Origin: Agrobacterium vitis
GTDB lineage: Bacteria; Pseudomonadota; Alphaproteobacteria; Rhizobiales; Rhizobiaceae
DNA length: 64,000 nt
Direction: 5' to 3'
NCBI RefSeq assembly: GCF_014926405.1
Contig: NZ_JACXXJ020000005.1
Span: 2,299,001-2,363,000, forward strand
Every line of letters begins with the position of its first letter. Positions within the stretch are counted from its first letter, which is position 1. The notes under the pieces were generated by a model that worked only from the letters and a program-made list of their open reading frames with translations, was not told the origin of the DNA and searched no databases. The position numbers and the translations under genes were made by a program. Positions 12,994 through 23,330 of this stretch are shown here, in pieces.

Positions 12994-13093
12994 ACAGCGC
13001 CGTGCGTTTTATAAAACGCACGGCGCTGTAACACTTTAAATCTGTTGCATAACTTTCTCCTGCAATCGATTCCGATTTAAGGAATTATGCAAT
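12994..13093. repeat. RIME-like intergenic element 1
   Basis: It contains a perfect 36-bp palindrome at 12994-13029 centred on GTTTTATAAAAC. A second, looser inverted repeat with arms TTGCATAA / TTATGCAA follows, ending near 13093. The two-palindrome plan matches elements at 24469 and 53020. Confidence 0.75.
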
Positions 13094-20072: not shown

Positions 20073-20110
20073 TACAGCACCCTGCGTTTTATAAAACGCA
20101 GGGTGCTGTA
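20073..20110. repeat. RIME-like palindrome 2 / likely terminator
   Basis: A perfect 38-bp palindrome has the same GTTTTATAAAAC core as the element at 12994. It lies between the convergent secretion operon and thrH-like gene and can serve as a bidirectional terminator; the second palindrome half is missing here. Confidence 0.75.
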
Positions 20111-20147: not shown

Positions 20148-20819
20148 TCAGCCGAAGGCGCTCCCCAGGAAAGTCGTGGCCCTCTTTGAGGCCGATCTGC
20201 CATTGATATAAATGGCTTCATCGAGGATATCGAGGACTTCACTATAGGATGATGTAGCCCGCAGATCCGGCGCGGCCAGCAGCGTCGCCATCGAGGGCTG
20301 AAACAGCACGCCATAGGTCGCCGCACGGATCATTGAAATGTCGTTCAACGCGTCGCCCATTGCAAAATGGGCGCACCCCTCGGTATCGACGGCGTCGAAA
20401 CAGAGATGTTTTCCAGCCAGCCCATTCCAGAAGTCGAAGCCGGTGACGATATCCTCGTCATTGGTCTGAAAACTGTGACAGAGGACCTGATCTGCAGCGA
20501 TCTGCTCGATAAAATGCCGGTTCATCGGGCTGAAGGAATCTGAGACGATCACCACACGCCCACGCAGCTTGAGCGCGGCGAGGAATTCCACCGCCCCATT
20601 GAACAGATCGAGTTCCGCGACACTGGCGCAGATTTCGGCCAGGGTAACGTGGTGATCGGCCAGATGCTTAATCCGCTGGTCCAGCAATTGACGGTAATCG
20701 GGAATTTCCCGCGTGGTCGCCTGGAGTTCTGGAATTCCGAACGACTTGGCGATATGCGGCCACATTTCCGGAACGAGAACGCCTTCGAGATCGATGAAGG
20801 AACAGATGGATGCGGTCAT
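20148..20819 (-). CDS. ThrH-like HAD phosphatase / phosphotransferase
   Basis: The 223-residue HAD-fold protein resembles ThrH, the phosphoserine phosphatase that can also move phosphate from phosphoserine to homoserine. The nucleophile motif is CSFIDLEGVLVPEMWPH, with ThrH-style LEG instead of the common DGT. ATTREIPDYRQLL, motif II VVIVSDSF and motif III-IV GDALNDISMI follow. Its ATG at 20819 overlaps the stop of the LysE-type exporter by four bases, so it is the third gene of the dioxygenase operon. In this setting it may act on an amino-acid phosphate linked to the hydroxylated product; that role is inference. Confidence 0.82.
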   Translation of the reverse strand: MTASICSFIDLEGVLVPEMWPHIAKSFGIPELQATTREIPDYRQLLDQRIKHLADHHVTLAEICASVAELDLFNGAVEFLAALKLRGRVVIVSDSFSPMNRHFIEQIAADQVLCHSFQTNDEDIVTGFDFWNGLAGKHLCFDAVDTEGCAHFAMGDALNDISMIRAATYGVLFQPSMATLLAAPDLRATSSYSEVLDILDEAIYINGRSASKRATTFLGSAFG

Positions 20820-21445
20820 TGAGCGCCACTCCCCAAAGTGCCCGCGGTGAACAGAATGGCCCCCAGCGAGGCGAGCACGACCCCGATCAGGATATTGAAC
20901 AGGCGCTGGCGACGCAGCACAACGGTTCGAATGGCCGGGTTGGACAGAAAGGTCGAAACGGACGCAAACCACAGAAAATGCGACAGGGAGATGAACAGGC
21001 CCCAAAGCAATTGGTGAGACAGCGGCGTGTCCTTGCCAATGAATTGCGTGTAGAGACTGATCACGAAAATCGACGTCTTCGGATTGAGACCATTGGTCAG
21101 AATACCGGTCATCATTTCCCGGCCCATGGATCTGTCGCTGGGAACCAGACTGCCTTCGATATCGCGTATCTTGCTGAAGGCCGTGGCCAGGCCCGCATAA
21201 ACCAGATAGGCTGCGCCGACGAATTTAATGATATCCAGAATATTGGGGAAAATATGCTGGATGATCGCAATGCCGAACATGGCATAGATCACATGAAACC
21301 AGCAGGCGATGGCAATACCCATCGACGCTGCAAGCCCGGATTTGCGGCCATAGAGAAAACTATTGCGCGACACCATGGCAAAATCCGCGCCGGGGCTGAG
21401 AACGGCCAGCCAGGTTATCGAAGCAATCAGAAGTATTTGTTCCAT
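20816..21445 (-). CDS. LysE/RhtB-family amino-acid exporter
   Basis: The 209-residue inner-membrane protein has about six TM helices and the LysE family pattern TWLAVLSPGADFAMVSRNS near the N-terminus. GILTNGLNPKTSIFVISLY follows in the middle. Such carriers export amino acids or derivatives with proton exchange. The frame is open to 21505, where an ATG directly follows the dioxygenase stop (TAAATG); the 21445 start is preferred because TM1 begins right after it. The longer start would still give a coupled operon. Its stop overlaps thrH. A GC hairpin lies in the spacer at 21473-21494. Confidence 0.88.
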   Translation of the reverse strand: MEQILLIASITWLAVLSPGADFAMVSRNSFLYGRKSGLAASMGIAIACWFHVIYAMFGIAIIQHIFPNILDIIKFVGAAYLVYAGLATAFSKIRDIEGSLVPSDRSMGREMMTGILTNGLNPKTSIFVISLYTQFIGKDTPLSHQLLWGLFISLSHFLWFASVSTFLSNPAIRTVVLRRQRLFNILIGVVLASLGAILFTAGTLGSGAQ

Positions 21446-21472
21446 AAATATGTGGGCTCCGGCTCCGGCAAC

Positions 21473-21494
21473 AGCCGCGCGGTTCCGCGCGGCT
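21473..21494 (-). promoter_or_regulatory. GC-rich hairpin between dioxygenase and exporter genes
   Basis: AGCCGCGCGG-TT-CCGCGCGGCT can form a 9-10 bp stem in the operon transcript 12 bases after the dioxygenase stop. There is no T run, so it is more likely an mRNA-stability or partial attenuation element than a terminator. Confidence 0.5.
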
Positions 21495-21505
21495 GACATC
21501 TGCAT

Positions 21506-22264
21506 TTATTTTCGGCGGAAGGTCAGGACCAGAACATCGCGCAGGCCTTGTTGGTCGGGATCGAGCTTGGTGATTGGCGTTACGCCATGGGCAACGCGTT
21601 CATCATTGACAATGGCAGCATCGAAGGGGTCCGTCAGCGTAAATTCCGCCAGCTTGACGCCGTCCCGATCCAGAATGGAGGTTTCGCCTCCAACAATATT
21701 CTGCCGGTTGATGAGCACCATCAGCACGAAATCCACACCATCGCGGTGAACACCTTCAGGTGTTGGCTTGCCACCGGTCTGCACAGCCTCAATGCGGAAC
21801 TGATGCAATTCGACATGCCATGTCGAAAAAGGCGACAGGGCGCCAAAGGTGGAAGAGGCGAACGAGAAAATCGCCTGCATCACCGGATTTTCAATGGTCG
21901 ATGCCAATACCGGCTCGAAATGGCGCTCAATGCCGCCATTCAGAGGATTGTAGGAGGTCGTCTGGAAATGCGGCTGATGCTTTTCGAGACTGACGGGCCC
22001 GCCCTTAGGCGCGCCCGTCAGGGTTGCGTGCCGGCGAAGGCGATATTTGCCGCCGTCGGCCATATAGGTATCCGGCTTAAGATCATCCCAGGATGCCTGA
22101 AAATCAGCAATATCCTGGCTGCTAAAATGGCTTTGATGAATGACATTGAGAAAATTGTTGCCTTCAAGAAACACAAAATCGAAGTCATGCAACTGTTGGC
22201 AGACATCGATATTGGTCACATTGGCCGGATCGCTGTGCTTTAAAACTGTAATATTGCCTTGCAT
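21506..22264 (-). CDS. 2-oxoglutarate/Fe(II) dioxygenase of free L-amino acids (IDO family, PF10014)
   Basis: The 252-residue protein aligns by eye with the Bacillus L-isoleucine 4-hydroxylase (IDO) family. The iron triad is H173 and D175 in GVHRDGVDF and H226 in ERVAHGVTP. The 2-oxoglutarate-binding arginine is R242 in GLRDVLVLTFRR. The core spans about residues 70-250. The family hydroxylates free aliphatic or sulfur amino acids; the substrate here is unknown. ATG 22264 has GGAG nine bases upstream; ATGs at 22285 and 22318 are alternatives. It is first in an operon with a LysE exporter and ThrH-like phosphatase, and a LysR gene diverges from it. Confidence 0.85.
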   Translation of the reverse strand: MQGNITVLKHSDPANVTNIDVCQQLHDFDFVFLEGNNFLNVIHQSHFSSQDIADFQASWDDLKPDTYMADGGKYRLRRHATLTGAPKGGPVSLEKHQPHFQTTSYNPLNGGIERHFEPVLASTIENPVMQAIFSFASSTFGALSPFSTWHVELHQFRIEAVQTGGKPTPEGVHRDGVDFVLMVLINRQNIVGGETSILDRDGVKLAEFTLTDPFDAAIVNDERVAHGVTPITKLDPDQQGLRDVLVLTFRRK

Positions 22265-22283
22265 TGAAAATGGCTCCGATTTC

Positions 22284-22308
22284 ATCGGCGTAACCCGCCG
22301 ACACCGAT
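22284..22308. promoter_or_regulatory. Candidate LysR-regulator site
   Basis: ATCGG-N15-CCGAT forms a dyad in the gap between the divergent dioxygenase and LysR genes. It contains an inner CGGCG/CGCCG repeat. Placement suits a LysR-type activator; binding is inferred. Confidence 0.35.
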
Positions 22309-22379
22309 TATCAATCATATGTTGTGTTTCGTGAAAACCGATATATTTTCGAGCAAACGCGTGAGGTAAATTCACACAT

Positions 22380-23330
22380 ATGTCCGACAATTCCGAATTC
22401 AGATCCAGGATGGCGCGCCTGCCGCAATTGGGGGCTTTGAAGGCCTTTTCGGTGGCGGCGCGGTATGAAAGTTTTGTGCTCGCGGCCCGGGAATTGCACG
22501 TTACACATGGGGCAATCAGCAAGCAGGTCAAGAATCTGGAGGAAAGTCTGGGCGAGCCGCTGTTCCTGCGTCGCAACCGAGCGGTCTTCCTGACGGAGCG
22601 GGGTCGTCAATTGGCGGCCAGGCTTGCCTCCGTGTTCCAGGATCTGGAAAATGTCGTCACGGATTTTCGCAGCAATGCCTATGCCCAACCCCTGATCGTC
22701 TCCTGCGAACCAACGCTCTGCCTGAAATTCCTCATCCCAAACCTTGGCGATCTGAAAGAAAGGACCGGTCTGGATGTCAAGGTTCTCGCAGCGGGCGGAA
22801 AAATCGATTTTCGCCGCGATCACGTCGATCTTGCCGTGCGGCGCAACGATTTTGCCATCGACCCCCGCCTGCATGTGAGGGAGCTGGCGCCGGAAGCGAT
22901 GGGCATGGTCTGCACGCCGCAGGTGGCGGCTGACCTCAGCAAAGCGCCTCGCCCCAGCGTGCCTGCTCTGCATACCCGCTCGCGCCCCGATGCCTGGCTG
23001 AACTGGTGCAAGACCCAGCCAGGGACCCGCAAGTTCAACTCGGACATTTTTTACGAGCATTTCTATCTGGCCCTTGAGGCGGCGATGGCCGGCCAAGGCG
23101 TCGCACTGGCATCGATCCATATGGTGACGACGGATATGGCAGCCGGACGACTGGCCGCGCTCGGTGCGTTTCATGAGGATGGCACCCATTATCTCGCCGT
23201 CTCCAATAGCGATTTTGCCGCCGACGAAAGACGGCTGGTGTTTACCGACTGGCTGTCACGACGCATGCGCGCCCATCTGGCGCAGGCATCCACTGCGCGT
23301 CCGACCGCAGAAACCCGGCATCTGCCATAG
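22380..23330 (+). CDS. LysR-family regulator (GcvA-like)
   Basis: The 316-residue protein has an N-terminal winged helix at residues 15-75. It includes LGALKAFSVAARYESFVLAA, then THGAISKQVKNLEESLGEPLF. An effector domain runs to about residue 300. It resembles the GcvA group, which often responds to amino acids. It diverges from the dioxygenase-exporter-phosphatase operon with a 115-base shared promoter region, so it is the obvious candidate regulator of that operon. The start at 22380 lacks a good ribosome binding site (GAGG about 14 bases away). Confidence 0.88.
   Translation: MSDNSEFRSRMARLPQLGALKAFSVAARYESFVLAARELHVTHGAISKQVKNLEESLGEPLFLRRNRAVFLTERGRQLAARLASVFQDLENVVTDFRSNAYAQPLIVSCEPTLCLKFLIPNLGDLKERTGLDVKVLAAGGKIDFRRDHVDLAVRRNDFAIDPRLHVRELAPEAMGMVCTPQVAADLSKAPRPSVPALHTRSRPDAWLNWCKTQPGTRKFNSDIFYEHFYLALEAAMAGQGVALASIHMVTTDMAAGRLAALGAFHEDGTHYLAVSNSDFAADERRLVFTDWLSRRMRAHLAQASTARPTAETRHLP

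What the first reader, a model, noticed from the sequence alone, without database searches (positions are those of the whole stretch)
20148..23330. Operon for hydroxylation and export of a free amino acid, with a dedicated phosphatase
A PF10014/IDO-type 2-oxoglutarate dioxygenase (full H-x-D...H iron triad and 2OG arginine) comes first. A LysE-type amino-acid exporter follows, starting either at TAAATG or 60 bases on. A ThrH-like HAD protein is third and overlaps by ATGA. A GcvA-like LysR gene diverges. Known Bacillus IDO makes 4-hydroxyisoleucine from free isoleucine and sits near an RhtA exporter. Pairing with LysE plus a phosphoserine/homoserine-type phosphatase in a rhizobial chromosome is not something I can recall as described. 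Inference: the cell makes and exports a hydroxyamino acid, possibly a plant- or competitor-directed signal or antimetabolite. The HAD may tie it to serine/threonine metabolism or act on a phosphorylated intermediate.
Basis: partly seen in the sequence, partly recalled or inferred. Interest (0 to 1): 0.78.

Follow-up and report, generated by a model that had tools for sequence, protein, structure and literature searches.

The report
Amino-acid hydroxylation and export operon
A grapevine-associated bacterium carries a compact gene set that probably adds an OH group to free threonine, pumps the product out, and includes its own enzyme to strip phosphate off it inside the cell; each part is a familiar type, but this combination, shared by quite different bacteria, looks undescribed and easy to test.

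Summary
Window 20148-23330 has a PF10014 Fe(II)/2OG dioxygenase, a LysE/Rht exporter and a ThrH-like HAD in one co-directional unit, with a GcvA-like LysR gene diverging. The order is not chance. The four-gene set occurs in five of 80 fetched loci with a related dioxygenase (Allorhizobium, Gluconacetobacter, Pseudomonas, two Burkholderiaceae); others have LysE without the HAD. In 60 same-genus genomes the operon-type dioxygenase and the HAD are in the same 7; the other 53 have neither. All four genes are intact in five relatives and under purifying selection. The genome has a separate SerB, so the HAD is not the serine-pathway phosphatase.

The window lies in an A. vitis-like genome with one PF10014 gene, so AVI may well be this gene or its ortholog; I could not check the accession. 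4-Hydroxythreonine is an antimetabolite that homoserine kinase phosphorylates.

Best reading: threonine 4-hydroxylase, exporter, and a phosphatase that removes the phosphate ester. Known parts, new combination; substrates untested.

The parts
21506..22264 (-). PF10014 Fe(II)/2OG dioxygenase (252 aa, starts MQGN); probable L-threonine (possibly homoserine or leucine) hydroxylase
20816..21445 (-). LysE/Rht-type amino-acid exporter (209 aa), start MEQILL
   Evidence: PF01810 99.9 bits; best NCBIfam relative is homoserine/threonine efflux TIGR00949, 121 bits, below its cut-off 183.95; start from relatives
20148..20819 (-). ThrH-like HAD phosphatase (223 aa), ATGA overlap with the exporter; proposed 4-phosphohydroxythreonine phosphatase
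22380..23330 (+). divergent GcvA-like LysR regulator
   Evidence: PF00126 and PF03466; GcvA model 219.8 bits, below cut-off 288; co-travels with the dioxygenase
22265..22379 (.). 115-bp divergent promoter region; promoter-like TTCACG-17-GATAAT at 22335-22307 on the - strand
   Evidence: strongly conserved to A. taibaishanense; the consensus match itself is no more than chance gives (1 found, 2.1 expected)
20073..20110 (.). perfect 38-bp palindrome between the HAD and the convergent secretion-system gene; probable two-way terminator
   Evidence: the repeat finder, 19-nt arms, 100% complementary; not flagged by the terminator scan; one looser second copy in the genome at up to 2 mismatches

Best explanation
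This is a LysR-controlled hydroxylate-and-export operon. The dioxygenase hydroxylates a free L-amino acid, most likely threonine, giving 4-hydroxy-L-threonine. The LysE/Rht exporter pumps the product out. The ThrH-like HAD removes phosphate from the 4-phospho ester that homoserine kinase (ThrB) makes from hydroxythreonine inside the producer; this protects the cell from its own antimetabolite and returns the product to the exporter. Shown here: gene content, order, conservation, selection, co-occurrence. From the literature: an A. vitis PF10014 enzyme acts on threonine; ThrB phosphorylates 4-hydroxythreonine, which is toxic to B. subtilis. Inferred: that this gene is that enzyme, the export substrate, the HAD substrate, and the biological purpose.
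For: Synteny: full LysR-dioxygenase-LysE-HAD order in 5 of 80 fetched loci (alpha-, beta- and gammaproteobacteria), LysE next to the dioxygenase in 9 of 80, plus Ahrensia and G1138 with LysR-dioxygenase-LysE. Tree of 83 rows: the LysE link needs 2 changes, shuffled mean 10.5, 0 of 500 shuffles as low. Co-occurrence: operon-type dioxygenase and HAD in the same 7 of 60 genus genomes, HAD in 0 of the other 53 (one clade, so not independent); HAD in 2 of 394 family genomes, both with the operon. Selection: dN/dS 0.019-0.170 in 16 comparisons. Chemistry: AVI of A. vitis and BPE of Bordetella petrii are called the only two hydroxylases known to act on threonine (PMC8948231, passages); PF10014 (DUF2257) members convert threonine to 4HT and ThrB converts 4HT to 4HTP (PMC7954711, passages). 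The genome has one PF10014 gene, its own SerB and ThrB. The eleven best fold rows of the HAD model are ThrH (1) and phosphoserine phosphatases (10), and E18 and R49, recalled as the substrate-ammonium and carboxylate contacts of this fold, are invariant in 25 sequences.
Against: I could not open the AVI accession (ABG82019.1) or Smirnov 2012, so identity with this gene is unproven; some A. vitis strains carry other PF10014 genes on plasmids. AVI also acts on leucine, so threonine may not be the natural substrate. The kcat of IlvA is given as about 16,000 times that of AVI or BPE, so threonine turnover is slow. BPE may belong to another clade; I could not place it. The HAD is missing from Ahrensia, Salinisphaera and three Streptomyces genomes and from the 8.5-kb stretch opened in G1138, so it is not obligatory. 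Chromobacterium locus L003 sits among the LysE-linked rows of the tree (support 83) without a LysE neighbour. Most relatives lack the partners: 71 of 80 loci have no adjacent LysE (some cut by contig ends), and 246 of 299 Burkholderiaceae genomes hold some PF10014 gene, so the family has other roles. No activity was tested.
Confidence: 0.48

Rival explanations
1. The product is a hydroxylated branched-chain amino acid (4-hydroxyleucine or 4-hydroxyisoleucine), a signal or antimetabolite as in the Bacillus IDO-RhtA operon; the HAD serves something else.
For: AVI also hydroxylates leucine at C4 (PMC8948231); the IDO operon pairs hydroxylase, reductase and RhtA exporter (PMC3684760).
Against: No reductase gene stands in this unit; the HAD belongs to an amino-acid phosphatase family, and I recall no phosphorylated form of branched-chain hydroxyamino acids in cells; exporter nearest to homoserine/threonine efflux models, though below their cut-offs.
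Confidence: 0.2
2. The HAD is a biosynthetic step: the dioxygenase works on, or downstream of, a phosphorylated amino acid (phosphohomoserine, phosphoserine or phosphothreonine) and the HAD, or its phosphotransferase activity, finishes the product.
For: ThrH is named a phosphoserine phosphatase/homoserine phosphotransferase; ATGA overlap with the exporter.
Against: Several organisms have the dioxygenase-exporter pair without the HAD, so the HAD is not needed to make an exportable product there.
Confidence: 0.15
3. The dioxygenase is not a hydroxylase but closes a ring (aziridine or cyclopropane), like its fold relatives TqaL and HrmJ/BelL (reactions recalled).
Against: No HrmI-like or other partner gene in the unit; the fold does not discriminate; a published A. 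vitis family member hydroxylates.
Confidence: 0.08
4. The operon feeds vitamin B6 synthesis by making 4-hydroxythreonine.
For: 4HTP is the PdxA substrate (PMC7954711).
Against: An exporter and a phosphatase would both drain that route; [quoted passage not shown]
Confidence: 0.04

Closest known systems
IDO operon of Bacillus thuringiensis (IDO, AMKP reductase, RhtA exporter; PMC3684760, part 1 of 5 and passages seen)
   Same: PF10014 hydroxylase for a free L-amino acid next to an amino-acid exporter
   Different: here LysE-type rather than RhtA exporter, no reductase, a ThrH-like HAD and a divergent LysR; dioxygenase 20% identical to IDO in the fold alignment
Hil operon (HilR, HilP, HilA, HilB, HilC; PMC3684760)
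   Same: LysR regulator and a PF10014 dioxygenase
   Different: no hilA, hilP or hilC within the unit; HilB model 49.8 bits against a cut-off of 350
AVI, threonine/leucine C4-hydroxylase of Agrobacterium vitis (PMC8948231, passages; Smirnov 2012 not seen)
   Same: same organism group and Pfam family; perhaps this gene or its ortholog
   Different: reported as an enzyme; I saw nothing about exporter, regulator or HAD neighbours in ten searches
ThrH, phosphoserine phosphatase/homoserine phosphotransferase of Pseudomonas (1rku)
   Different: 32-37% identity to the canonical-clade rows aligned; operon HADs fall outside that clade (23 of 64 rows, SH-aLRT 99); the subfamily of this HAD mostly has [ST]DSFxPMN and WNxLxGKHLC where canonical rows mostly have SDTFxxF
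MpDO, BsmA homolog 3pl0 of Methylibium
   Different: has W and V at the places of H122 and M189 (alignment), as do all 62 rows of the unlinked clade, against H in 10 and M in 11 of 11 LysE-linked rows

Membership tests
PF10014 2OG-Fe dioxygenase | Pfam model above cut-off; H-x-D...H and R | tested here: met
   237.4 bits, cut-off 23.1; residues invariant in 19
AVI threonine 4-hydroxylase | same gene as accession ABG82019.1 | tested here: inconclusive
AVI threonine 4-hydroxylase | makes 4-hydroxythreonine from threonine | not testable with these tools
   needs an assay
HilB / Hil operon | HilB model; tandem hilA | tested here: not met
   49.8 bits against 350; only three genes in the unit
IDO operon | hydroxylase, reductase and RhtA exporter | tested here: not met
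   no reductase gene in the unit; exporter is PF01810
LysE/Rht exporters | PF01810 model | tested here: met
   99.9 bits, cut-off 25.6
LysE/Rht exporters | threonine/homoserine subfamily TIGR00949 or RhtC above cut-off | tested here: not met
   121 of 183.95; 71.6 of 288
ThrH | NCBIfam ThrH models | tested here: inconclusive
   NF010109 met (261 of 133), TIGR02137 not met (134 of 223.4)
ThrH | clusters with canonical ThrH | tested here: not met
   11 operon HADs (5 of them placed in operons only by equal contig length) lie outside a 23-row canonical clade in a quick tree of 64 rows that I chose, SH-aLRT 99; rooting not inferred, 1rku itself not in the tree
ThrH | phosphotransfer from phosphoserine to homoserine | not testable with these tools
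   needs an assay
GcvA | NCBIfam GcvA model | tested here: not met
   219.8 of 288

The most novel reading that the evidence does not exclude
A portable antimetabolite cassette: a threonine 4-hydroxylase, an exporter and a self-immunity phosphatase that works on the activated (phosphorylated) form of the product. The target cell's own homoserine kinase would arm the compound, while the producer disarms it with the HAD, the first dedicated 4-phosphohydroxythreonine phosphatase that I know of.
Probability: 0.32. Interest if true: 0.72.

Novelty: new variant of a known kind. Interest (0 to 1): 0.52.

Why it matters
If right, it gives a genetic home and a physiological role to threonine hydroxylation by PF10014 enzymes, which in the papers seen here appears as an in vitro and biotechnology reaction. 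It names a plausible immunity step for a known antimetabolite and a plant-associated source of it, and it offers a marker (H122/M189 dioxygenase plus LysE plus ThrH-like HAD) for finding others.

Tried and rejected
HAD as the cell's serine-pathway phosphatase: rejected, the genome has a SerB over the curated cut-off (217.3 of 144.15 bits) and no second match to the HAD.

Chance adjacency in one strain: rejected.

Plasmids: 10 of 72,556 records have a ThrH-like match, all 31-35% identical to the HAD; their neighbourhoods were not opened. 45 records have a PF10014 match; five regions were opened and none shows LysE next to the dioxygenase (by annotation for the first three, by blastp for the other two).

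Other neighbours: a clustering of reading frames over the 80 loci returned largely overlapping frames of the same genes; it was useful for the LysE cluster (9 loci), the HAD cluster (5 loci) and methionine-type genes near some Rhodanobacteraceae copies. Three of those genomes were opened: G1138 has LysR-dioxygenase-LysE, G1058 and G936 have no LysE.

Shared contigs, by equal contig length only: 8 dioxygenase-exporter, 5 dioxygenase-HAD and 8 exporter-HAD pairs, three lengths in all three lists; I compared the first 35 of 120 listed dioxygenases (own cluster left out), the first 33 HADs and the first 50 exporters. Rhizobium lemnae: exporter (89%) and HAD (64%) share a length, but no dioxygenase among those 35 does; not resolved.

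Class search: 9 of 385 alphaproteobacteria have a HAD match at E 1e-20; eight are 28-37% identical and their neighbourhoods were not opened. In one search the P. entomophila match runs over one stop codon; the operon gene itself is an open frame of 201 aa.

dN/dS left out G442 (dioxygenase identical) and A. taibaishanense.

Literature: ten paper searches. Smirnov 2012 and the PF10014 structure paper are not held. PMC8948231, PMC7954711, PMC9997740 and PMC8226366 were seen as passages only; PMC3684760 as part 1 of 5 plus passages; all others as search listings.

I lowered the best explanation from 0.50 to 0.48 and the novel case from 0.33 to 0.32 for it.
Full report
What is there. On the minus strand, in order, lie a PF10014 dioxygenase (22264-21506), a LysE exporter (21445-20816) and a ThrH-like HAD (20819-20148, overlapping the exporter by ATGA); a LysR gene runs the other way from 22380. 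The unit ends at a perfect 38-bp palindrome, 20073-20110. The 115-bp divergent promoter region is strongly conserved in A. taibaishanense.

Where it is. The window is part of contig C5 (3.79 Mb) of a 6.40-Mb genome in 7 contigs. The dioxygenase is 93-100% identical in G442, G402, G422, G405 and G430 and 82% in G289. G405 matches Agrobacterium vitis VAR06-30 by equal coordinates of a plasmid gene, and G430 matches A. vitis CG957 by near-equal ones. So this is an A. vitis-like genome; that is an inference, as no name is given.

It is conserved as a unit. Of 80 loci fetched with a dioxygenase profile, 9 have a LysE gene directly after the dioxygenase; 6 of these also have the divergent LysR, and 5 the HAD: A. 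taibaishanense, Hydromonas, Gluconacetobacter sacchari, Pseudomonas entomophila and a Burkholderiaceae MAG. The other 71 have no adjacent LysE. Ahrensia kielensis and G1138 have LysR-dioxygenase-LysE without an adjacent HAD. In the dioxygenase tree (83 rows, quick method) the LysE link needs two changes where shuffles need 10.5 on average, and 62 unlinked rows form one clade (SH-aLRT 99); ten other unlinked rows lie outside it, one of them, Chromobacterium L003, among the linked rows. Three residues mark the linked rows: H122 (10 of 11), M189 (11 of 11) and N227 (9 of 11), against W (62 of 62), V (62 of 62) and D (54 of 62) in that clade (P0001 numbering).

The HAD goes with the operon. In 60 same-genus genomes the operon-type dioxygenase is in 7 and the HAD in the same 7; an eighth genome has a distant PF10014 gene, and two of the seven have a second, distant copy or fragment. 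These seven form one group of relatives, so the agreement is not seven independent events. In 394 Rhizobiaceae genomes the HAD is in 2, both with the operon; the dioxygenase search found 5, of which Ahrensia has the operon without the HAD and two are distant (37-38%). Of nine genomes reached through loci, the five with a HAD in the operon have that one HAD only; the four without it there (Salinisphaera and three Streptomyces) have none. Operon HADs fall outside the canonical ThrH clade.

It is maintained. All four genes are open in five relatives, and 16 pairwise dN/dS values (4 genes, 4 relatives) lie between 0.019 and 0.170.

Limits. Identity with AVI, the export substrate, the HAD substrate and the ecological role are untested. 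The HAD is absent in several lineages, so it is an added part, not the core. PF10014 genes are common outside this operon: 246 of 299 Burkholderiaceae genomes have one at E 1e-40; three were opened, two without a LysE neighbour and one (G1138) with it.

Novelty. Hydroxylase plus exporter is known from the Bacillus IDO operon (PMC3684760). The combination with a LysE exporter, a dedicated ThrH-like phosphatase and its regulator was not found in ten searches of the open library, which lacks most subscription journals, Smirnov 2012 among them; that paper may show part of this gene order.

Noticed in passing
L083:3877-5651 (NZ_AP023281.1, A. vitis VAT03-9 plasmid pRvVAT039a): An HrmI-like protein (9n1a HrmI, 346 bits, E 1.7e-102) directly before a PF10014 protein close to HrmJ and BelL (216 bits each), followed by a gene annotated dapF: looks like a nitrocyclopropyl-alanine cassette of the hormaomycin/belactosin kind in a plant-associated rhizobium (pathway recalled).
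   Followed up: partly
L082:4719-7615 and L095:2738-5234 (A. vitis VAR06-30 and CG957 plasmids): A second PF10014 cassette: DMT transporter, argininosuccinate-synthase-like protein and PF10014; in CG957 short frames with IS5 transposases between and around them.
   Followed up: no
search of 299 Burkholderiaceae genomes: 246 of 299 genomes carry a PF10014 gene at E 1e-40, close to a core gene; its role is unknown to me. Only three neighbourhoods were opened.
   Followed up: partly
P0127 and P0245 (Rhizobium lemnae): LysE (89%) and HAD (64%) share contig length 61409, but none of the 35 dioxygenases compared has that length: perhaps an operon with another or no dioxygenase.
   Followed up: no
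window 12995-13028 and 20075-20108: Two related long palindromes with the same GCGTTTTATAAAACGC core and compensated arms, the only two in the genome at up to 2 mismatches.
   Followed up: partly
L020, L035, L040, L074, L079: Rhodanobacteraceae/Lysobacteraceae PF10014 genes lie near reading frames that look like a homoserine acyltransferase and a Cys/Met-metabolism PLP enzyme; judged by eye, not by a family search.
   Followed up: no
L053:2-760: A second PF10014 gene (41%), on the other strand, beside the four-gene operon in a Burkholderiaceae MAG.
   Followed up: no
L004:8778-9200: In a Methylophilaceae MAG the LysE-less dioxygenase is followed by a hydrophobic frame (140 aa) that looks like a DMT/EamA-type exporter piece, so other exporters may take the LysE place.
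   Followed up: no
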